Below are positions 16,346 through 44,963 of a stretch of DNA of 64,000 nt, piece by piece. The stretch is from Hyphomonas sp. Lineage in GTDB: Bacteria > Pseudomonadota > Alphaproteobacteria > Caulobacterales > Hyphomonadaceae. Below the pieces are notes generated by a model. The model saw only the letters and a list, made by a program, of their open reading frames with translations, had not been told where the DNA came from and did no database searches. Where the stretch lies: contig CP051229.1 of NCBI GenBank assembly GCA_017792365.1, forward strand, positions 806,001 to 870,000, given 5' to 3'. Position numbers and translations under genes: made by a program. Numbering within the stretch: the stretch's first letter is position 1; each line of letters starts with the position of its first letter.

Positions 16346-17589
16346 CTACATCGTCGCTGCGCCGACCCGGCGGATAAATTCCGGCGGCGGCGCGGTCTCT
16401 TCCAGCAGCGACCCCTTGATCGGCCGCGGCGCGCCGAAGACATGGCCCTGGCCGAAGGGGATATCGAATTCAAGAAGCTCGATGACCGACTTCTCGCTCT
16501 CGACCTTCTCCGCGATCAGGTCGACGCCGTAGCGCGTAAAGACAGCGGGCACATCTTCCGGCGAGATGTCACGGGTGATCGAAGACAGCGGGCGCTCGCC
16601 ACCGGGCGTCAGCTCCTCGAGCAGCCGGTCGCCATTCACCTTCACGAAGCGAACGCCCGCCGCGTGCAGCTCTGGCAGGTCAAACGCGAGACCGTCCCCC
16701 TTATCGAGCGAGAACCGGAAGCCAAGGTCGCGCAGGCGGCCCATGTTTCGCATCGCCAGATCAGAGCGGCGCTGGAAGGTCTTCACGCCCATTTCAAAGA
16801 TCATGGAGCCCGCGAGGTCACGATTTTCCTTCATGAACTCAAGGAAGGACGGGAAGAAATTGTCATCCTCAAGCGACGCCATCGCGATATTGCAGAACAC
16901 GCCGATCCTGCGGTCGCGCTCAGACAGCCGCCGCACGATCTGCACGCAGCGGAACAGCAACATGTTGTCGATGACGCCAAGCAGGTTCGCGTGCTCTGCG
17001 GCCCCAAGAAACTCACTCGGCATGATAAGCTTGCCGTCCGCCCGGCGCAGACGCGTGAAGCCTTCATAGAAGCAAACCCGCCGTTGAGGCAGATTCACGA
17101 TCGGTTGCAGGTGCAGATCAACGCGGTTTTCACGCAGCGCGTCACGAACGGCGTCCAGCGCAGAAGCGCCGTCAATCGACGATCCTGCACGCCCGAGCGC
17201 ACCACCTGCAGGCGGCTTTCGAAGTTCTTGCCCAGCTTGGTGATCATGTCTTCGAGACCGCGCATCTCCGACACGATCGTCTCGCGCCGGTTCGCCGATT
17301 CTCGTTCGAACGACTGCACCAGGTCCTTCGATTGAGCCTCTGCTTCAGCCACTCTCGTGGTCAGCTTCCGCAGTTCGGCCTTCATCTCGAAGAGCGCTTT
17401 CTCCGTGGCGCTCGCGCCAGCCGTGCGGGCGATGGCCATGTGGATCTGCGAGAACGCCAGGCCCGTCGCCACGGCCGCAAGGCCCGCCATCACCGGCACA
17501 GCGCCATAGTACTGGACGAGCGCAAGCCCGCCCAGCGCTGACGCCGTCAGGTAGACGAGCGCGATCATGATGTGAGCAATTATCGGCAT
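16346..17589 (-). CDS. TipF-like degenerate EAL protein, apparent frameshift
   Basis: A membrane-anchored protein with two N-terminal hydrophobic segments (MPIIAHIMIALVYLTASAL and a second near residue 30), a coiled coil (roughly 70-130) and a C-terminal EAL-type domain. Catalytic motifs are altered: EAL reads EGF, and the DDFG loop reads LDKGDG. QG near the end is kept, so c-di-GMP binding without hydrolysis is plausible. This layout matches Caulobacter TipF, a polar flagellum-positioning factor. The two halves are in different frames; one missing base near 17184 (GG on the coding strand, probably GGG) would give VQGSSIDGASALDAVRDALRE. The start at 17589 is a best guess; an earlier in-frame ATG at 17685 adds an unconvincing extension. 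Confidence 0.75.
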
Positions 17590-17881
17590 TCCGTCGCGTT
17601 CAGCCCCGCGCCACCACCAGCGCAATCCTCTGTTTCTGTTGGCATCCGCCAACGTTGACAAGAGAACAATGTAGCATGTCCGCACAACGAGGGGCGAGCG
17701 CCGTCATGCAGTAGGCGATCACTTCGCCAATTACGTGTACCCCGCCCCCTCAACGCCCCTGTTTTCCCTGCGATTACATGTCCCTACAGCGATGTGGGAT
17801 TGTGGCAACACTGCGGCCAAGACTTGTCCGAACCGCCATCAATTAATTGGACAGTCCGAACCCTGCCCCGTATCGAGGAGC

Positions 17882-17995: not shown

Positions 17996-18853
17996 TTACC
18001 CGATAGCGGTCTCAGCCTGTTCCTTGGCAATTCGTTGCTCGATGGCGCCAAGCCCATCAATCTCGACCCGCACGACATCGCCATCCTTCAGGAACGCCGG
18101 CGGCGTCCGCGCGACCCCCACACCGGCCGGCGTGCCGGTAAACAGCAAATCGCCAGGCTCGAGCGGGAACGCTTTGGTCAAATGCTCGATCTGCGCGGCG
18201 ATGTCGAAGATCATGTCGCCGGCCAACCCGTCCTGACGCACCTCACCATTCACAAAGCAGCGCAAGCGCAGCGCCGACAGGTCATCGATCTCGTCGGCCG
18301 TCGTCAGCCAGGGCCCCACAGGCGCATGCGTATCAAAGCCCTTCCCCATGATCATCGTAGGGGTGGCCCTCTGCCAGTCACGAACCGAATAATCGCATCC
18401 GCACATGTATCCCGCGATGATCTCATGCGCCCGATCACGCGGCACATGCCGGCCCCTCCGGCCGATCACGACAACAAGCTCAGTCTCATAATCCAGCGCA
18501 TCGGAAACGGCGGGAAGCCACACCTCCCCAAACGGGTCATTGATGCTGCTAGACTGCTTGTTGAACCACATCTGGACGGACGGCGGTTCCCGACCCGTCT
18601 CGGCCGCGTGGTCCCTGTAGTTGAGCCCGATCCCGAGAATTTTTCCCGGACGCTCGATCAGGGAAACAAGCCGCAAATCTGATACGGGCAGCGCTTCGCC
18701 GCTTGTCGGCAGCTCGCCAAGCTCCGCAGGCGCGGTGGCGGCAAGGCCCAGTATTTCACTCAGTGAGACATCCTCGCGCAGCGGCGTGATCACATCATCA
18801 GCAACGGTTCCGTACCGAAAGCTCCCTGCGTGTTCGAAACGTGCGACCTTCAT
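17996..18853 (-). CDS. Fumarylacetoacetate hydrolase family protein
   Basis: A 285-residue member of the FAH superfamily (hydrolases, decarboxylases and hydratases of 2-keto acids, metal-dependent). Signatures are GKILGIGLNYRDHAAETG near residue 93, the metal-binding acidic residues in DALDYETELVVVIGR, and LFTGTPAGVGVARTPP near the C terminus. The short N-terminal FAH_N-like region fits the 2-oxohept-3-ene-dioate hydratase/isomerase branch. Substrate is not predictable, and neighbouring genes give no pathway clue. It is followed by a strong terminator and diverges from the DUF262 gene. Confidence 0.9.
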   Translation of the reverse strand: MKVARFEHAGSFRYGTVADDVITPLREDVSLSEILGLAATAPAELGELPTSGEALPVSDLRLVSLIERPGKILGIGLNYRDHAAETGREPPSVQMWFNKQSSSINDPFGEVWLPAVSDALDYETELVVVIGRRGRHVPRDRAHEIIAGYMCGCDYSVRDWQRATPTMIMGKGFDTHAPVGPWLTTADEIDDLSALRLRCFVNGEVRQDGLAGDMIFDIAAQIEHLTKAFPLEPGDLLFTGTPAGVGVARTPPAFLKDGDVVRVEIDGLGAIEQRIAKEQAETAIG

Positions 18854-18941
18854 TCACCACCCGGATCAATTCTCACGTCGACAATGGACCATCCCTGTCG
18901 ATCCGCCTAGGTATTCCCCGTCACTAGCGGGGTTATTCGGA

Positions 18942-20609
18942 ATGGCAATCTACTCAGAGATGTTGCGCGGTCGCGACGTCTTTGCGCCCGCAGCGGATAT
19001 CCGCGTACCGGCGTACCAGCGAGGGTTTGCCTGGACCGAGAAAGAGGTCGGCGAACTGACGCGCGACCTCGTCGAAGCCTTCACACAATCCGTCATCTTC
19101 TTTCTGGGTACGCTCGTTCTGGTGCAGCCACGGGCCCGCGGCCCCGGCGACATCGTGGACGGGCAACAGCGGCTGACGACGCTCACGATCATTCTCGCGG
19201 TGCTGCGCGACCTCACCCCCTCAAAGGATGTCGCCTACACCGCGCACAGCATGATCGGTCACGAGACCCCCGCCTTCGTCGGCGACAAGCAGAAATGGCG
19301 GCTCACCCTCAACTCGATGGATGCGGAATTCTTCCGGAAATTCGTCCAGACCAAGAACGGCACCAAGGACATCGACGCCATCAAGGACGCCGCCGAGGAA
19401 TCCGGCTCCGAATCCCAGAAACGCATCGCCATGGCGGTTCAGGCCATCCACGACGAACTCGACCAGATATCGCCGCAGGAGCAGGAGCGCTTCGTCAACT
19501 GGCTGGCCAATGACCTCCACGTCTCCAAGGTCCGGGTGACCGAGCACAACATCGCCTACAAGGTCTATCTGGTCCTCAACCGTCGCGGCCTTCCGCTCTC
19601 CGACCACGATATCCTGAAGGCCGCGCTGCTCGAACGCGCCGGCTTTCCTCCCAAGGAAGCGGTCAAGCACTCCGAGCGCTGGAACAGCTTCGCCAACCGC
19701 CTCGGCCATGACGCGTTCGAAGCGATGCTCAAGCAGGTCCGCTTCCTCTATGATCGCCAGATGAAGGGCGAGTTCCTGGACGCCATCCTGCTGTCCATCC
19801 TGCCGTTCATGACGATTGCCAACTTCATCAACGACAAGCTGCCGCGGTTCGTTGACGCCTTCGACGCCATCGTCAACGGCGCGAAAACCACGCTCATCAG
19901 CTTCTCTCCCGAAACCGAAAAGCGCCTGACCTTCCTGCGCGAGATCCATCACGAGGGCTGGCGTGCGCCGGCCATGAAGTACCTCGTCGACTATGCCAAC
20001 GACGATCAGGAAACCGACCGCTTCTTCACCAAGCTCGAGCGTCTGGCCTACATGCTCCAGTACGGCGGCCGCCCGCGCGACTTCCGCCAGCGCCGCTACC
20101 GCAAACTCCTCGACGCGATGGATTCGCCGGGTTGGATGTCTGATCCCGAGAGCCCGCTGGAACTCTCAGGCGTCGAACAATCCGATTTCCGCGAGCGGCT
20201 CCGGGGCCGTTTCCCCAACTTCAAGCAGCGCCGCGCTCTCCTCATGCGGATCAACGCGTCAGTGCCCGGCGGCCGGGTCCTGCCCTCCGACGCCGATGCA
20301 ACCGTCGAACACATCCTGCCGCGAAACCCGCCGCGCGATTCCGGATGGTTCCAGGCCTGGTCCAAGAAGAGGGACCGCGAGGAACTGGTCGAGTGTATCG
20401 GCAACTTCACCCTCCTCACCGACGCGGAGAACCAGACCGCCGACAGGAAGAGCTTCGAGGAAAAGAAGGCGATTTTCTTTGAAAACGGCGCTCCGACCTA
20501 CGAGCTCACGGCGGACCTTCAGAACAAACCCGCATGGACGCCAGAAGAGGCCCGCGCCCGTCGCGAATGGCTGGTCGAGATCATGTCCGCAGAGTGGGAT
20601 CTGGCCTGA
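18942..20609 (+). CDS. GmrSD-type DUF262/DUF1524 protein (type IV restriction-like)
   Basis: A 555-residue single-chain protein. The N-terminal DUF262 (GmrS-like) domain shows VPAYQRGFAWTEKE near residue 25 and IVDGQQRLTTL near 70, the ParB-like nucleotide-binding motif. The C-terminal DUF1524 (GmrD-like) domain has the His-Me/HNH-type TVEHILP, then ECIGNFTLL, N and SFEEKKAIFF. Fused GmrSD proteins are NTP-dependent type IV restriction enzymes, and some relatives such as BrxU cut modified phage DNA. The ATG at 18942 is right before the DUF262 core; a longer in-frame extension lies antisense to the FAH gene and is rejected. No partner methylase is adjacent, as expected for type IV. Confidence 0.85.
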   Translation: MAIYSEMLRGRDVFAPAADIRVPAYQRGFAWTEKEVGELTRDLVEAFTQSVIFFLGTLVLVQPRARGPGDIVDGQQRLTTLTIILAVLRDLTPSKDVAYTAHSMIGHETPAFVGDKQKWRLTLNSMDAEFFRKFVQTKNGTKDIDAIKDAAEESGSESQKRIAMAVQAIHDELDQISPQEQERFVNWLANDLHVSKVRVTEHNIAYKVYLVLNRRGLPLSDHDILKAALLERAGFPPKEAVKHSERWNSFANRLGHDAFEAMLKQVRFLYDRQMKGEFLDAILLSILPFMTIANFINDKLPRFVDAFDAIVNGAKTTLISFSPETEKRLTFLREIHHEGWRAPAMKYLVDYANDDQETDRFFTKLERLAYMLQYGGRPRDFRQRRYRKLLDAMDSPGWMSDPESPLELSGVEQSDFRERLRGRFPNFKQRRALLMRINASVPGGRVLPSDADATVEHILPRNPPRDSGWFQAWSKKRDREELVECIGNFTLLTDAENQTADRKSFEEKKAIFFENGAPTYELTADLQNKPAWTPEEARARREWLVEIMSAEWDLA

Positions 20610-20713: not shown

Positions 20714-22042
20714 ATGAACACCAATATGAGGGCGTTGTTGTGCGCCACCGCGGCCGCTGCCGCCCTGCTGACGTCCGCGTGCGGTGAGAATTCAGCCGAG
20801 ACCGCGCCTGTGGTCACTGAAACCGAACCGGCGACCACCTTTGCCCAACCCGCGACAGCGCTGGGGCTACCCACCGCAGCGCCAGCCGATGTGGGGTTCT
20901 CAGCTGAAGGGCTCCAATCGCTTAGGGACGAGTTCCGCGCCCTGGTCGACAACAAGGAACTGGCCGGCGTCACTACCGTGCTCTCCCGCCACGGCCAGAT
21001 TGTCCATTTCGACACCTACGGCGCAGCCAGCGCCGCCTCCGGCGAACCCCTACAGCCCGACAGCATCTTCCGCATCGCGTCCATGACCAAACCCGTCGCC
21101 GGCGTGGCGATGATGCAGCTCTGGGAACAGGGCAAGTGGAAGATGGACGACCCGGTCGCCATGCACATTCCCGAATTCGCTGATCTGCAGGTGAAAACCG
21201 CTGATGGCGGTACGGAACCGCAGAACAGCCCCATGACGATGGCCCAGATCATGAGCCACTCGGCGGGTCTCGGCGTCAGCGCGGTCTATGGCGGCTCGGA
21301 TCTCGGCTCCGGCGATCTGCAGGACATGATCAACAAGCTGGCCGCGATGCCGCTGGAAACCCAGCCGGGCACGGCGTGGGACTATGGCCCCAGCGTGAAC
21401 GTACAGGGCTACCTGATCGAAAAACTCTCCGGCCAATCTCTCGATGCATACTTCGAAGAGAACATCTTTCAGCCGCTCGGCATGACCGACACAGGCTTCT
21501 GGGTGCCAGAAGAAAAGGCCCCACGGGTCGTCGCAATCCACACCTACGACGACAACGGCCAGATCATGGCGGCCGACGCATCCAACGAGGTGAGGACCGA
21601 TAAGCCAGAATTCCTGTCCGCCTCTGGCGGCCTGATGTCCACTGCTGGCGATTATTGGAAATTCGCGCAGGCCGTCCTGAACGGAGGAGAACTCGATGGC
21701 GCGCAGATCCTGCAACCCGAAACCGTCCAGATGATGTACGAAAACGTCCTCGCGGATGGCGTCGCGGTCGATCTCTATGGCCCTGAAATGCCTGGCATCG
21801 GCTTCGGCATGGACTTCGCCGTTGTGATGGACCCTGAAGCCGTCGGCACGGGCCAGGGGCTCAACACCCACTACTGGGGCGGCGCTTACGGCACGTGGTT
21901 CTGGATCGATCCAACCAACGACGTCGTGTTCGTAGGCATGATCCAGAACCGGGATGGCTCGCGCCCCGATGGCGGCACGCCACGCACCCGGGACATCTCA
22001 CCGCGCGCCACCTACGCCGCCCTCACCGATCCGTCGAAATAG
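20714..22042 (+). CDS. Serine hydrolase lipoprotein (class C beta-lactamase/esterase fold)
   Basis: A 442-residue predicted lipoprotein (signal ending LLTSAC, Cys near 23) of the beta-lactamase/penicillin-binding-like serine hydrolase family. The nucleophile motif SMTK follows IFRIA near residue 120. The YxN-type motif is YGPSVN in the segment WDYGPSVNVQGYL, and the third HxG-like box is near HYWGGAYGTWFW. These features fit EstB-type esterases and D-aminopeptidase-like enzymes more than true antibiotic-hydrolysing AmpC. Substrate is unknown. It starts a rightward run with a small membrane protein, an SDR and a thioesterase. Confidence 0.88.
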   Translation: MNTNMRALLCATAAAAALLTSACGENSAETAPVVTETEPATTFAQPATALGLPTAAPADVGFSAEGLQSLRDEFRALVDNKELAGVTTVLSRHGQIVHFDTYGAASAASGEPLQPDSIFRIASMTKPVAGVAMMQLWEQGKWKMDDPVAMHIPEFADLQVKTADGGTEPQNSPMTMAQIMSHSAGLGVSAVYGGSDLGSGDLQDMINKLAAMPLETQPGTAWDYGPSVNVQGYLIEKLSGQSLDAYFEENIFQPLGMTDTGFWVPEEKAPRVVAIHTYDDNGQIMAADASNEVRTDKPEFLSASGGLMSTAGDYWKFAQAVLNGGELDGAQILQPETVQMMYENVLADGVAVDLYGPEMPGIGFGMDFAVVMDPEAVGTGQGLNTHYWGGAYGTWFWIDPTNDVVFVGMIQNRDGSRPDGGTPRTRDISPRATYAALTDPSK

Positions 22043-22357: not shown

Positions 22358-23128
22358 ATGACAAACCTCTTCGACCTCTCCGGCAAGACCGCCGTGATCA
22401 CCGGCTCCTCCAAGGGCATCGGAAAAGCGATCGCCGAACAGTTCGCAGCCCATGGCGCGCGCGTGGTCATCTCCTCCCGCAAGCCGGAGCCCTGCCAGCA
22501 GGTCGCTGACGAGCTCAACAAGAAGCATGGCGACGGAACCGCAATCGCCGTCCCCGCCAACATTTCCTCGAAGGACGACCTCCAGAACCTCGTAAACGAG
22601 ACCAACTCGGCATTCGGGCAGATCGACATCCTGATCTGCAACGCCGCTTCAAATCCCTATTATGGACCCATGTCAGGGATCGAGGACGAGCAATTCTCCA
22701 AGATCCTTTCCAACAACATCATCTCGAACAACTGGCTGATCCAGATGGTTTCGCCGCAGATGAAGGAGCGTAAGGACGGTGCCATCGTCATCATCTCCTC
22801 GATCGGCGGCCTGCGCGCCTCCACCGTCATCGGCGCCTATTGCATCTCGAAGGCTGCGGACGTTCAGCTGGCCCGTAACCTCGCCGCCGAACTGGGGCCG
22901 CACAACATCCGCGTGAACTGCATCTCGCCCGGCCTCGTGAAGACCAACTTCGCAAAAGCGCTCTGGGAAGACGACGCCAACCGCGAACAGCGTGAGGAGG
23001 AAACCCCGCTGCGCCGCATCGGAGAACCCGACGACATCGCCGGCGCAGCCGTCTACCTCGCCTCCCGGGCGGGCGCCTGGACAACCGGCCAGAACATCGT
23101 GGTCGACGGCGGCGTCACAGCGGTCTGA
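22358..23128 (+). CDS. SDR-family NAD(P)-dependent oxidoreductase
   Basis: A 256-residue classical short-chain dehydrogenase. The cofactor loop is TGSSKGIG near residue 17, with NAAS near 90, the catalytic Ser in IISSIGG, and YCISK providing Tyr and Lys. The glycine-rich NIVVDGGV is at the C terminus. SSRKPEP after beta-2 suggests NADP preference. Substrate is not predictable; the adjacent hotdog thioesterase hints at acyl-CoA or fatty-acid metabolism. It overlaps nothing and is followed by the thioesterase after about 10 bases. Confidence 0.9.
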   Translation: MTNLFDLSGKTAVITGSSKGIGKAIAEQFAAHGARVVISSRKPEPCQQVADELNKKHGDGTAIAVPANISSKDDLQNLVNETNSAFGQIDILICNAASNPYYGPMSGIEDEQFSKILSNNIISNNWLIQMVSPQMKERKDGAIVIISSIGGLRASTVIGAYCISKAADVQLARNLAAELGPHNIRVNCISPGLVKTNFAKALWEDDANREQREEETPLRRIGEPDDIAGAAVYLASRAGAWTTGQNIVVDGGVTAV

Positions 23129-42271: not shown

Positions 42272-43276
42272 CTAGAGTGAATCAACGTTGATCAGTTCGC
42301 TGATGTGCGTATGCGCAACGGCCTTGGGATCATCCACCGCCTTGTCGATCGCCTGCAGGGTCGCGCTATCGGCAATCCCTGTCCGCTCCAGCCCCAACTG
42401 ATCCTGGGCTCCCAACACACCGAGCTTTGTGTTGCGCCCGAAGATGCCGTCCGGCGTCCCGACAACGTCGAAGCCTAGTCGAACAAGGTCTTCCTGCAGC
42501 GCCTGCACACGCTCTCCCCGGTCGCCGATCTTGAGCGGCGCATTGGGATCATCAATCACCCGCTGGGGAGACTTGAGCAGATCCAGAACCTTGCTCGTCC
42601 ACAAAACACGTTCCCCCTCGGCATGGGCCGCAGACCGGCTCTGCGGGTTGCCGTAATTCACCCCGCGCGACACCGCAGCCGCATCGCCCTTGTCGGCCCA
42701 TTCATTGAGCCCGTTCATCTTCCAGTACGCCGCAGCAGCGCGGATAGACGCCATGTAATCCTTGGCCAGAAGGTCCGGTCGCTCCTCAAGCGGCAGGTTC
42801 GCCGCCTCGCCAACGCGGCGATAATTGTCGCGCCCCGTCAGCTGGATGAACCCCCGCCCGCGGTACTTGTACCCATCCCCCGGCTGCGTATTGCCCAGCG
42901 ACTCCCGCGCATAGACATAATTCGCCAGCGCTTCGGGATTGCCCGCATGCGCCTTCAACAGGTCCGGCTTCCCCCGGTACCGCGACGGCCAGACCTGCAG
43001 AAGCCGCTCGGCGCTATACCAGAGCTTCTCCTCCGTCAGCGTCAGCCAGCCCGTCTCGATCAGCCCCTGACCGATGAAATGCCCCACACGCTCCGGCGTG
43101 TTGAGTTCGAATTCCTGCAGCGTCTCCCACGACCGCAGCATCGCGGTAATGTACCGGCCACGCGGCTTGGGCGCGAAAAACGCCCAGCTATTGCCCCCGG
43201 AAACCCTTGGCAGCAGCGACACCAGCTTCGTCAGATTGATCTGGCTCGTGTCGTCAATCATGAGAAATTTGGCCAA
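42272..43276 (-). CDS. GH19-type lysozyme/chitinase-like enzyme with peptidoglycan-binding domain
   Basis: A 334-residue enzyme. The GH19-like catalytic region has GHFIGQGLIETGWLTL near residue 65 (catalytic Glu) and YKYRGRGFIQLTGRDNYRRVGEA near 138. A PG_binding_1 domain follows near 250-310 (LKIGDRGERVQALQEDLVRLG, DGIFGRNTKLGV). Enzymes of this layout are phage-type endolysins or cell-wall remodelling muramidases. No signal peptide is seen. The start is TTG at 43276, with a GGAGGG ribosome-binding site; the internal Met six codons later is an alternative. No holin or other phage gene is adjacent. Confidence 0.83.
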   Translation of the reverse strand: MAKFLMIDDTSQINLTKLVSLLPRVSGGNSWAFFAPKPRGRYITAMLRSWETLQEFELNTPERVGHFIGQGLIETGWLTLTEEKLWYSAERLLQVWPSRYRGKPDLLKAHAGNPEALANYVYARESLGNTQPGDGYKYRGRGFIQLTGRDNYRRVGEAANLPLEERPDLLAKDYMASIRAAAAYWKMNGLNEWADKGDAAAVSRGVNYGNPQSRSAAHAEGERVLWTSKVLDLLKSPQRVIDDPNAPLKIGDRGERVQALQEDLVRLGFDVVGTPDGIFGRNTKLGVLGAQDQLGLERTGIADSATLQAIDKAVDDPKAVAHTHISELINVDSL

Positions 43277-43348
43277 GTCGTCCCTCCTCTGACCAATTCA
43301 CCGCGGCACTGCGCCCCCATGCCGCCCGGCGAATCATATCATGATCCG

Positions 43349-44510
43349 ATGATGGTAGAACCGCGCTTCACATGCCTCGAATTCTTCGCCGGCGGCGGCC
43401 TCGCGCGGCTGGGCCTCCAGGATCATTTCGATTGCGTCTTCGCAAACGACATCGATCCCATGAAGTGCCGCACCTACCGGCAAAACTTCCCCGGCGACGA
43501 ACTGATCGAGGCGGATGTCACCGCAATCGACCCAGACAAGGTCCCGGACGCTGACCTCGCCTGGGCGTCCTTCCCCTGTCAGGATCTCTCCCTCGCCGGC
43601 GCACGCGGCGGACTGAACGGCGCCCGGTCCGGCGCCTTCTGGGGCTTCTGGAACATCATCGATCGCCAGCTGAAGCAGAATCGTGCGCCACGCCTGCTCG
43701 TGCTGGAGAACGTGACCGGCTTGATCTCATCGAACGGCGGGGGCGACCTGCAGGCCCTGCTTTCGACGCTTCAGGCCGGCGGCTACCACGCCGGCGCGGT
43801 CGTTCTCGACGCGGCGCACTTCCGCCCCCAGTCCCGCCCCCGCGTCTTCATCATCGCCCACCGCGGCGCACCGCCGCCCGCCCTCGTTTCAACGGCCCCG
43901 CACCCCGTCCATCATCCCCAAGCGCTCACACGCTTCGTAGCCACGCTCCCCGCACAGATCGCCGACAAATGGGTATGGTGGCGATTGCCAGACCTGCCAT
44001 CCGCAACATCGCCCTTTCAGACGTGATCGAAACGTCTCCGCCCGAGAACGTCTGGCGCGCCGACGCCGCCATGGAAAAGCTCCGCCGCCAGATGTCGCCG
44101 GCCCACCAGAAGCGTCTCGCCGACGCGCTGGATACTCCCGAGCTCCGAGCCGGCGCCGTCTACCGCCGCATCCGCACAGAAGACGGCCAGAAGGTCCAGC
44201 GGGCCGAGATCCTTACGACGGCCTCGCTGGCTGCCTCCGAACCCCCGCCGGCGGCTCATCCAAACAACTCCTCGTGGTCACGCAGAACGGCAAGGCGCGG
44301 CTGCGCCCGCTTCTGGCTCGCGAGGCCGCCCGGCTCATGGGCTGTCCGGAAACCTATAGTCTGCCAGCCAGCCAGACCGACGGCCTCAAAGTGATGGGCG
44401 ATGGCGTCTGCGTCCCGGCCGTGAAGTGGCTCGCCGACGAATTGCTCGCGCCCCTGCTGGCCCGGCAGCCAGTCTCGCTGGACGCAAAGGCCGCCCCGCT
44501 GCCAGTATAG
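43349..44510 (+). CDS. dcm: DNA (cytosine-5) methyltransferase, two apparent frameshifts
   Basis: A C5-methyltransferase of about 386 residues. Motif I is FFAGGGLARLGL, motif IV with catalytic Cys is SFPCQDLSLAG, and ENVTG (motif VI) and QSRPRVFIIAHR (motif VIII) follow in the first frame. The sequence then needs a base near 43997 to continue as RNIALSDVIETSPPENVW in the second frame. A further base near 44211-44214 is needed to reach DGLAGCLRTPAGGSS (motif IX region) and the final REAARLMGCPETY in the third frame. All motifs are intact once the shifts are corrected. vsr starts four bases after the stop, the classic pairing that repairs T:G mismatches created by deamination. Confidence 0.88.
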
Positions 44511-44513
44511 GCC

Positions 44514-44963
44514 ATGGCCGACACGCTCAGTCCTGCCCAACGGACCACCGCCATGCGAGCGGTCAAGTCCGCGAACACCACGCCCGAGATCGCCGTCCGG
44601 AAGGCCGCCCACCGACTGGGCCTGCGTTTCCGTCTCCAGCGCACCGATCTGCCGGGAAAGCCGGACCTCGTCTTCGTTTCCCGCCGCATCGCCCTATTCG
44701 TCCACGGCTGCTTCTGGCACGGCCACGACTGCCCGCGCGGTGCCCGCACGCCAGCCACCAACCGCGACTACTGGATCGCAAAGATCGCGAGGAACGCGGA
44801 CCGCGACACCCGGGTCGCCGGCGAGCTGCAGGCGCTCGATTGGCGCCCGGTCACGGTCTGGGAGTGCGAAACGAAGCCTCCTGAGGGTCTCGAGGCCCTC
44901 CTCACAGCCCGCCTCCAGCTTGACCGGAAAAACGCTTGCGACCAGTTAGGTAGAAACGGCTGA
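44514..44963 (+). CDS. vsr: Very short patch repair endonuclease
   Basis: A 149-residue nicking endonuclease that cuts 5' of T in T:G mismatches arising from 5-methylcytosine deamination. It shows MRAVKSANTTPEIAVRKAAHRLGLRF, the catalytic LPGKPDLVFVSRRIALFVHGCFWHGHDC (zinc-binding His/Cys; the second half is the typical WHGH) and NRDYWIAKIARNADRD. It starts 3 bases after the dcm stop and ends 12 bases before the next gene, so the three form one cassette. Full length and apparently intact. Confidence 0.95.
   Translation: MADTLSPAQRTTAMRAVKSANTTPEIAVRKAAHRLGLRFRLQRTDLPGKPDLVFVSRRIALFVHGCFWHGHDCPRGARTPATNRDYWIAKIARNADRDTRVAGELQALDWRPVTVWECETKPPEGLEALLTARLQLDRKNACDQLGRNG

What the first reader, a model, noticed from the sequence alone, without database searches (positions are those of the whole stretch)
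18942..20609. Stand-alone fused GmrSD-type restriction candidate
DUF262 (DGQQR) and DUF1524 (EHILP...GNFTLL) are fused in one 555-residue protein with no methylase or other defence gene adjacent. This matches type IV enzymes that attack modified phage DNA. Its isolated position among metabolic genes is unusual for a defence gene and may mark an insertion.
Basis: partly seen in the sequence, partly recalled or inferred. Interest (0 to 1): 0.55.

Follow-up and report, generated by a model that had tools for sequence, protein, structure and literature searches.

The report
Core-genome GmrSD-like nuclease gene
The gene encodes an intact two-domain DNA-cutting enzyme of a kind usually found in mobile phage-defence islands, but here it sits at one fixed chromosomal address in almost every sequenced member of its bacterial family, so it is an old, inherited gene and not a recent insertion.

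Summary
In detail: window 18942-20609(+) encodes a 555-residue fused DUF262-DUF1524 (GmrSD_N/GmrSD_C) protein with both active-site motifs intact. The idea that it marks an insertion fails. Orthologues occur in 96 of 105 genomes of the window's own taxonomic family (83 of 89 good ones), none with internal stops, and 91 of 97 places lie beside the same divergent FAA-hydrolase gene. Its tree has no supported conflict with neighbouring genes, dN/dS is 0.02-0.10, and the recognised active-site residues are invariant in 33 orthologues. A related gene is present in 30 of 30 genomes of one genus of a sister family, at another locus in the ten stretches fetched. Phosphorothioate sensing is unlikely (DndC in 1 of 105 genomes), and so is general 5mC cleavage (48 of 96 carriers have a C5-methyltransferase match). 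Best reading: a type-IV-like, NTP-gated nuclease that became a vertically inherited core gene, most likely a resident barrier against foreign or abnormal DNA, possibly a domesticated DNA-maintenance enzyme. No phenotype could be tested.

The parts
18942..20609 (+). fused DUF262-DUF1524 (GmrSD-like) gene, 555 aa plus stop
18996..19628 (+). GmrSD_N (DUF262, ParB/Srx-like NTPase) domain, residues 19-229
19158..19172 (+). DGQQR motif, residues 73-77, invariant in the 33 orthologues of A1
20229..20579 (+). GmrSD_C (DUF1524, HNH/His-Me nuclease) domain, residues 430-546
20307..20321 (+). EHILP nuclease motif, residues 456-460; E456, H457 and P460 invariant
20400..20432 (+). G487-N488-F489 to N497, nuclease asparagines, invariant; N497 aligns with N541 of DndI
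18854..18941 (.). 88-base divergent intergenic region between the FAA-hydrolase gene and the GmrSD-like gene; a GTTC-N7-GTTC LexA-like pattern was found upstream in only 1 of 33 orthologues
17996..18853 (-). FAA-hydrolase family gene, divergent neighbour at 91 of 97 orthologue places (context, not part of the enzyme)
20714..22042 (+). beta-lactamase family gene, variable presence between the enzyme gene and the SDR gene (context)
22358..23128 (+). SDR oxidoreductase, right-hand anchor of the locus found in 21 of 32 relatives' stretches (context)

Best explanation
This is a GmrSD-family, NTP-gated HNH nuclease that was fixed in the chromosome of the ancestor of this bacterial family and has been inherited vertically since. 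Likely mechanism, by analogy with DndI, SspE and BrxU: the DUF262 domain binds and hydrolyses NTP at the DGQQR site and, through a conformational or oligomeric change, controls the C-terminal E-H...N...N nuclease, which nicks or cuts DNA recognised as foreign or abnormal. Shown here: architecture, intact sites, predicted fold, vertical inheritance, purifying selection, fixed locus. Inferred: catalysis, NTP gating, and the role as a resident (core) barrier against invading DNA. Its trigger is probably not general 5-methylcytosine and not phosphorothioate made by a resident Dnd system.
For: Pfam, PADLOC (Orf5 E=4.4e-76, HEC-06 E=3.4e-57) and fold matches. AF2 model, mean pLDDT 88.3; closest solved folds DndI 9jfl Z 21.2 over 513 residues and SspE Z 20.2, BrxU Z 10.3. 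58 invariant columns in 33 orthologues include DGQQR, E456, H457, N488 and N497; N497 aligns with DndI N541, whose alanine variant has reduced nuclease activity and no protection (PMC11662687, passages). Present in 96 of 105 family genomes at a fixed locus. Tree congruent with 9 neighbour genes: 21 of 26 splits shared, 0 supported conflicts, patristic r 0.911. dN/dS 0.022-0.098 in the 8 computable of 9 close pairs. Related copies in other families lie in a type I RM operon (L100 by Pfam, L096 by similarity), which points to a defence ancestry.
Against: No biochemical or phage data. A fixed, syntenic, vertically inherited gene is unlike the published picture of GmrSD genes as mobile and patchy (PMC4619093, PMC12707154; passages), which weakens the defence part. 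48 of 96 carriers also have a C5-methyltransferase match, some partial, so a BrxU-like appetite for 5mC is unlikely and the real target is unknown. A metabolic or DNA-maintenance role would give the same conservation.
Confidence: 0.55

Rival explanations
1. Domesticated housekeeping enzyme: the former restriction enzyme now acts on the cell's own DNA metabolism (repair, recombination intermediates, chromosome or gene-transfer processes), and defence is lost or secondary.
For: Near-universal, single-copy presence but for one contaminated genome with two copies and fixed locus; purifying selection similar to neighbouring metabolic genes; residues N124, W473 and F489 invariant here but R, F and L in all six rows of the clade that includes the type I RM-embedded copies; a second related gene in 30 of 30 genomes of another genus. 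Mrr-type domains in the same family show the patchy pattern expected of defence genes (18 of 105).
Against: Faster evolution than all seven neighbours compared (2.41 times the concatenate; HAD 1.98, FAH 1.82, the others lower). No repair or replication gene among the Pfam-named neighbours and no LexA-like site upstream in 32 of 33. True loss seems tolerated in at least one genome, G001.
Confidence: 0.27
2. Ordinary horizontally acquired type IV restriction gene (glucosyl-hydroxymethylcytosine DNA of T-even-like phages), sitting as an insertion among metabolic genes.
For: Domain architecture and motifs are those of GmrSD; remote relatives occur on 207 of 72,556 plasmid records, about 27-30% identical in the 12 rows I saw.
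Against: Fixed locus, family-wide presence, congruent tree, normal GC. No plasmid or phage record carries a close copy (all below 60% identity; the six phage matches are partial).
Confidence: 0.1
3. Phosphorothioate-sensing effector like DndI or SspE that depends on host DNA sulphur modification.
For: DndI and SspE are the nearest solved relatives by profile and fold; the P-x-Y-Q-R stretch that holds the PT-sensing tyrosine of DndI (PMC11662687, passages) is present, with P23, Q26 and R27 invariant and Y25 mostly Y.
Against: DndC (TIGR03183) found at E<=1e-10 in 1 of 105 family genomes and not in the window's own. The P-x-Y-Q-R motif is shared by the related clades in general, so it is not diagnostic.
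Confidence: 0.03
4. The enzyme works together with its divergent FAA-hydrolase neighbour as one functional unit.
For: Divergent pairing at 91 of 97 places; in G001 both are missing together.
Against: At 6 of 97 places the GmrSD-like gene persists without that neighbour; the neighbour is a metabolic hydrolase with paralogues elsewhere in many of the genomes.
Confidence: 0.05

Closest known systems
GmrSD / Eco94GmrSD type IV restriction enzymes (PMC4619093, PMC4437046; passages seen)
   Same: Fused DUF262-DUF1524, DGQQR, His-Me nuclease motif; E456-H457 correspond by motif to D507-H508 of Eco94GmrSD, and N488 and N497 by spacing to N169 and N178 that PMC4619093 predicts for GmrD (not aligned to GmrSD by a tool here)
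   Different: Fixed core locus and congruent tree, against published horizontal transfer and defence-island context. E instead of D before the His is within the family's range (EHxxP in PMC12707154)
BrxU (PMC8565348, PMC10952713; passages seen)
   Same: Fold and domain order (Z 10.3)
   Different: BrxU sits inside a BREX island and cleaves 5mC, 5hmC and glc-5hmC DNA; here no PADLOC match among ten flanking proteins, and C5-methyltransferase matches coexist in 48 of 96 carriers
DndI / SspE (PMC11662687; passages seen)
   Same: Best profile and fold matches, whole-length for DndI; DGQQR; HNH, N497 aligned with DndI N541
   Different: They depend on host phosphorothioation; DndC in 1 of 105 family genomes
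PFLU4242 of Pseudomonas fluorescens SBW25 (PMC8544851, PMC11637435; passages seen)
   Same: Chromosomal DUF262-DUF1524 gene; its deletion removes the cost and SOS response of two megaplasmids, so a model for what a resident member can do
   Different: Described there as an accessory gene; its sequence was not compared here
RloF-like genes inside type I RM loci (PMC4619093, passages) and PADLOC Orf5 / HEC-06 models
   Same: Full-length sequence relatives; the RM-embedded copy L100 scores 602 bits to the same Orf5 model that the window protein matches with 255 bits
   Different: L100 and L096 sit in hsdR-hsdS-hsdM operons

Membership tests
GmrSD family (fused type IV restriction enzyme) | DUF262 plus DUF1524 in one chain | tested here: met
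   both over Pfam cut-offs
GmrSD family (fused type IV restriction enzyme) | DGQQR NTPase motif and D/E-H...N...N nuclease site intact | tested here: met
GmrSD family (fused type IV restriction enzyme) | GmrSD-family fold | tested here: met
   predicted model only
GmrSD family (fused type IV restriction enzyme) | cleaves modified (glc-5hmC or 5hmC) DNA, restricts T-even phages | not testable with these tools
   no assay possible
GmrSD family (fused type IV restriction enzyme) | typical, not defining: mobile, in defence islands, tree at odds with taxonomy (PMC4619093) | tested here: not met
BrxU | encoded within a BREX locus | tested here: not met
   no PADLOC match at E<=1e-5 among ten flanking proteins of the window; relatives' flanks were not scanned for BREX
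BrxU | cleaves 5mC DNA | tested here: inconclusive
   indirect only: 48 of 96 carriers have a C5-methyltransferase match
DndI / SspE PT-sensing effectors | resident phosphorothioation genes | tested here: not met
   DndC at E<=1e-10 in 1 of 105 genomes, none in the window's own; only DndC was searched
Recently inserted mobile defence gene | patchy presence, variable site, discordant tree | tested here: not met
Family core gene | near-universal, single copy, syntenic, congruent, purifying selection | tested here: met

The most novel reading that the evidence does not exclude
A phage-defence nuclease architecture has been domesticated into the core genome of whole bacterial lineages, perhaps more than once (one family at the FAA-hydrolase locus; one genus of a sister family at an rsmB-rpe locus), and now does permanent work for the cell: either a standing innate barrier to all foreign DNA or a chromosomal DNA-maintenance task.
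Probability: 0.35. Interest if true: 0.7.

Novelty: new member of a known kind. Interest (0 to 1): 0.45.

Why it matters
GmrSD-type enzymes are treated as accessory, mobile phage-defence genes. A clade that is nearly universal, syntenic and under strong purifying selection across a family shows that such nucleases can become permanent parts of a genome. That gives a clean system for asking what a resident modification-dependent nuclease is for, and how the cell tolerates it (compare PFLU4242, which conflicts with plasmids). It also warns that finding these domains in a genome is not evidence of a defence island or of recent acquisition.

Tried and rejected
Recent insertion: rejected. Pseudo-enzyme: no support, sites invariant. 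PT-sensing partner: DndC almost absent. SOS control through a Caulobacter-type LexA box (pattern recalled, not from a call): GTTC-N7-GTTC in 1 of 33 upstream regions, so not supported. FAA hydrolase as obligate partner: 6 of 97 places lack it. Independent origin of the two fixed clades: suggested by different loci and by the clade with RM-embedded copies grouping with this family's genes rather than with the other fixed clade (93/81 support, not starred), but a single clade was not rejected (AU p 0.205), so two independent origins are not shown. The genome-contig search gave only two remote relatives, 23% identical. NCBIfam has no matching family over its cut-off; PHROGs gave only families of unknown function. 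Literature: no paper describing a family-wide core GmrSD gene turned up in five searches; that is limited to the held library. The taxon name of the window's family is not known; an alphaproteobacterial origin is my inference from gene content only. Papers not cited as passages were seen as listings only.

Genomes without the gene, told fully: 9 of 105 family genomes have no match. G001 looks like a real absence: on one 4.2 kb contig the SDR gene and an EAL-domain ORF (39% identical to the window's EAL ORF over 237 residues) are separated by one 262-aa ORF, and the FAA hydrolase is missing too. In G013 the contig starts inside the beta-lactamase gene, and in G097 the FAA-hydrolase gene lies 339 bases from a contig end, so these two are probably assembly cuts. 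G007 (82% complete) and G011 (99% complete) also lack the FAH, HAD and SDR anchors; G068, G069, G078 and G125 lack a FAA-hydrolase match at E<=1e-50 and were not looked at further.

Rows dropped and an error found: five near-duplicate orthologues and the DUF262-only ORF of the window's genome were left out of the tree, and 4 of 33 genomes with few neighbour genes out of the congruence test; neighbour genes are present in 11 to 31 of 33 genomes. The 'EAL' query used was partly out of frame (seen); EAL was not in the trees, and I use no EAL count or EAL dN/dS from those calls.

Full report
What is there. Window 18942-20609(+) encodes a 555-residue protein with no internal stop. Pfam finds GmrSD_N at residues 19-229 and GmrSD_C at 430-546, both well over cut-off. 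PADLOC's best models are Orf5 (4.4e-76, residues 19-545) and HEC-06 (3.4e-57, in two stretches). The neighbours are metabolic or housekeeping by Pfam, and ten flanking proteins give no PADLOC match at E<=1e-5.

The site is not an insertion. In the window's genome family, 96 of 105 genomes hold a match at E<=1e-60 (83 of 89 good genomes; 9 of 10 genera), and none of the 97 matches has an internal stop; one genome with 9% contamination shows two copies. Coordinates show a divergent FAA-hydrolase gene within 600 bases at 91 of 97 places. In the 32 relatives' stretches I fetched, the wider gene order recurs: FAA hydrolase beside it in 30 of 32, the HAD-family gene in 26 of 32, SDR in 21 of 32, some stretches being cut by contig ends. 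As yardsticks, the Mrr-type nuclease domain occurs in 18 of 105 of the same genomes and C5-methyltransferase matches in 51 of 105.

Genomes that lack it. Of the nine, one (G001) shows an apparent true absence on one contig, together with the FAA hydrolase; two are explained by contig ends; the other six could not be decided (details under Tried and rejected).

Vertical descent and selection. On 29 genomes, the gene's tree shares 21 of 26 splits with a concatenate of nine neighbouring genes (patchy, present in 11 to 31 of 33 genomes) and has none of its 18 supported splits in conflict; patristic correlation is 0.911. The same test on seven neighbours gave 0 to 3 conflicting splits each (SDR 3; RibF, MaoC, FAH and GroEL 1; HAD and GroES 0). 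The gene evolves 2.41 times as fast as the concatenate, faster than all seven (HAD 1.98, FAH 1.82). In eight of nine close pairs where dS could be computed, dN/dS is 0.022-0.098, similar to the neighbours.

Active sites. In 33 aligned orthologues the 58 invariant columns include Q26, R27, W31, D73-G-Q-Q-R77, R120, N124, N213, R215, G216, D223, K226, E456, H457, P460, G487, N488, N497, D501 and K508. DGQQR corresponds to the motif whose arginine is needed for ATP hydrolysis in DndI, and N497 aligns with DndI N541, whose alanine variant has reduced nuclease activity and no longer protects (PMC11662687, passages). E456-H457 match by motif D507-H508 of Eco94GmrSD, whose alanine variants are inactive (PMC4437046, passages). 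N124, W473 and F489 mark this clade: in the six rows of the clade that includes the RM-embedded copies these are R, F and L; D501 is invariant here but also found in 7 of 14 rows of the other fixed clade. In 15 remote paralogues of the family, Q75 of DGQQR is L (8) or R (7).

Fold. An AF2 model (mean pLDDT 88.3, pTM 0.73) is nearest to DndI 9jfl (Z 21.2, 513 residues, rmsd 5.6) and SspE (Z 20.2), then BrxU (Z 10.3). High rmsd for SspE and BrxU suggests that their domains are arranged differently. A shared fold shows no substrate.

Relatives elsewhere. In an even sample of the class, 5 of 385 genomes match the family profile at E<=1e-30, two of them from this family; in the order, 68 of 200, of which 41 are from this family. 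None of the 21 stretches fetched from outside the family shares the locus. One genus of another family has a related gene in 30 of 30 genomes. I fetched ten of these; the nine compared with L088 all share both flanking genes, and eight of nine also share the rsmB-like and rpe genes, the ninth being cut by a contig end. Of four stretches from other genera of that family, two share three of these neighbours, one shares two and one none. L100 and L096 lie in hsdR-hsdS-hsdM operons (L100 by Pfam, L096 by similarity). In the tree, the family's orthologues form one clade (98/97), the other fixed clade is separate (100/99), and the six-row group with the RM-embedded copies joins this family's side (93/81, not starred). 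Holding the two fixed clades together is not rejected (AU p 0.205). Two paralogue groups in the family are also syntenic within their genera (seven and five stretches compared). On plasmids there are 207 records with remote matches, all under 60% identity and about 27-30% in the 12 rows seen; phage records give only six partial matches.

What it probably does. DUF262-DUF1524 proteins couple NTP hydrolysis to an HNH nuclease (PMC10952713, PMC11662687; passages). The host DNA has to be spared. Two known triggers are unlikely: phosphorothioate, because DndC is found in 1 of 105 genomes, and 5mC in general, because 48 of 96 carriers also have a C5-methyltransferase match, the window's genome among them with one nearly full-length and two partial matches. 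Coexistence does not exclude a narrow sequence context or hydroxymethylated and glucosylated cytosine, and some matches are partial. The best precedent for a resident chromosomal member is PFLU4242: its deletion removes the cost and SOS response caused by two megaplasmids and has no detectable fitness effect without them (PMC8544851, passages). I therefore favour a standing barrier to foreign or abnormal DNA (about 0.55), with a domesticated maintenance role as main rival (about 0.27).

Against the literature. The family survey reports that GmrSD genes sit among type I RM and mobility genes and that their trees disagree with taxonomy (PMC4619093, passages), and a recent review states that most restriction systems belong to the accessory genome (PMC12707154, passages). 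The clade described here departs from both in its evolutionary behaviour, not in its domains. Five searches found no paper on this.

Noticed in passing
window 42623-44026(+) and 44514-44963(+): A C5-methyltransferase domain (profile positions 1-174 of 324 only) upstream of a Vsr mismatch-endonuclease gene; the ORF in between, 43969-44394 in another frame, has no Pfam match, so the methyltransferase looks truncated or split. The genome holds two further C5-methyltransferase matches, one nearly full-length.
   Followed up: partly
L087-L095, L106 (genus g296): A related fused DUF262-DUF1524 gene is present in 30 of 30 genomes of a genus of a sister family, with shared flanking genes in the ten fetched stretches: a second core-like member.
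   Followed up: partly
L070-L074, L037, L038 and L063-L065, L068, L069: Two groups of remote DUF262-DUF1524 paralogues with L or R in place of the first Q of DGQQR are also at conserved loci within their genera.
   Followed up: partly
window 16346-17685(-): The EAL-domain ORF (16346-17098) and the ORF before it (17095-17685) are in different frames, while G001 has one 450-aa ORF matching the EAL part (39% over 237 residues) and only weakly the first part (E 0.04): a possible frameshift in the window's EAL gene.
   Followed up: partly
L058:7890-8852 (window's own genome, C1 near 1,234,500): A second DUF262-like ORF of about 321 aa without a DUF1524 match, just at the Pfam cut-off (33.1 of 33.2 bits).
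   Followed up: no
G000:C1:2803958-2804269: An Mrr-type nuclease domain about 6 kb from a partial C5-methyltransferase match (C1:2797709): a possible real defence locus of this genome.
   Followed up: no
L060:1538-2326: In G001, where the enzyme and FAA-hydrolase genes are missing, an ORF of 262 aa without a Pfam match lies between the SDR gene and an EAL-domain ORF.
   Followed up: no
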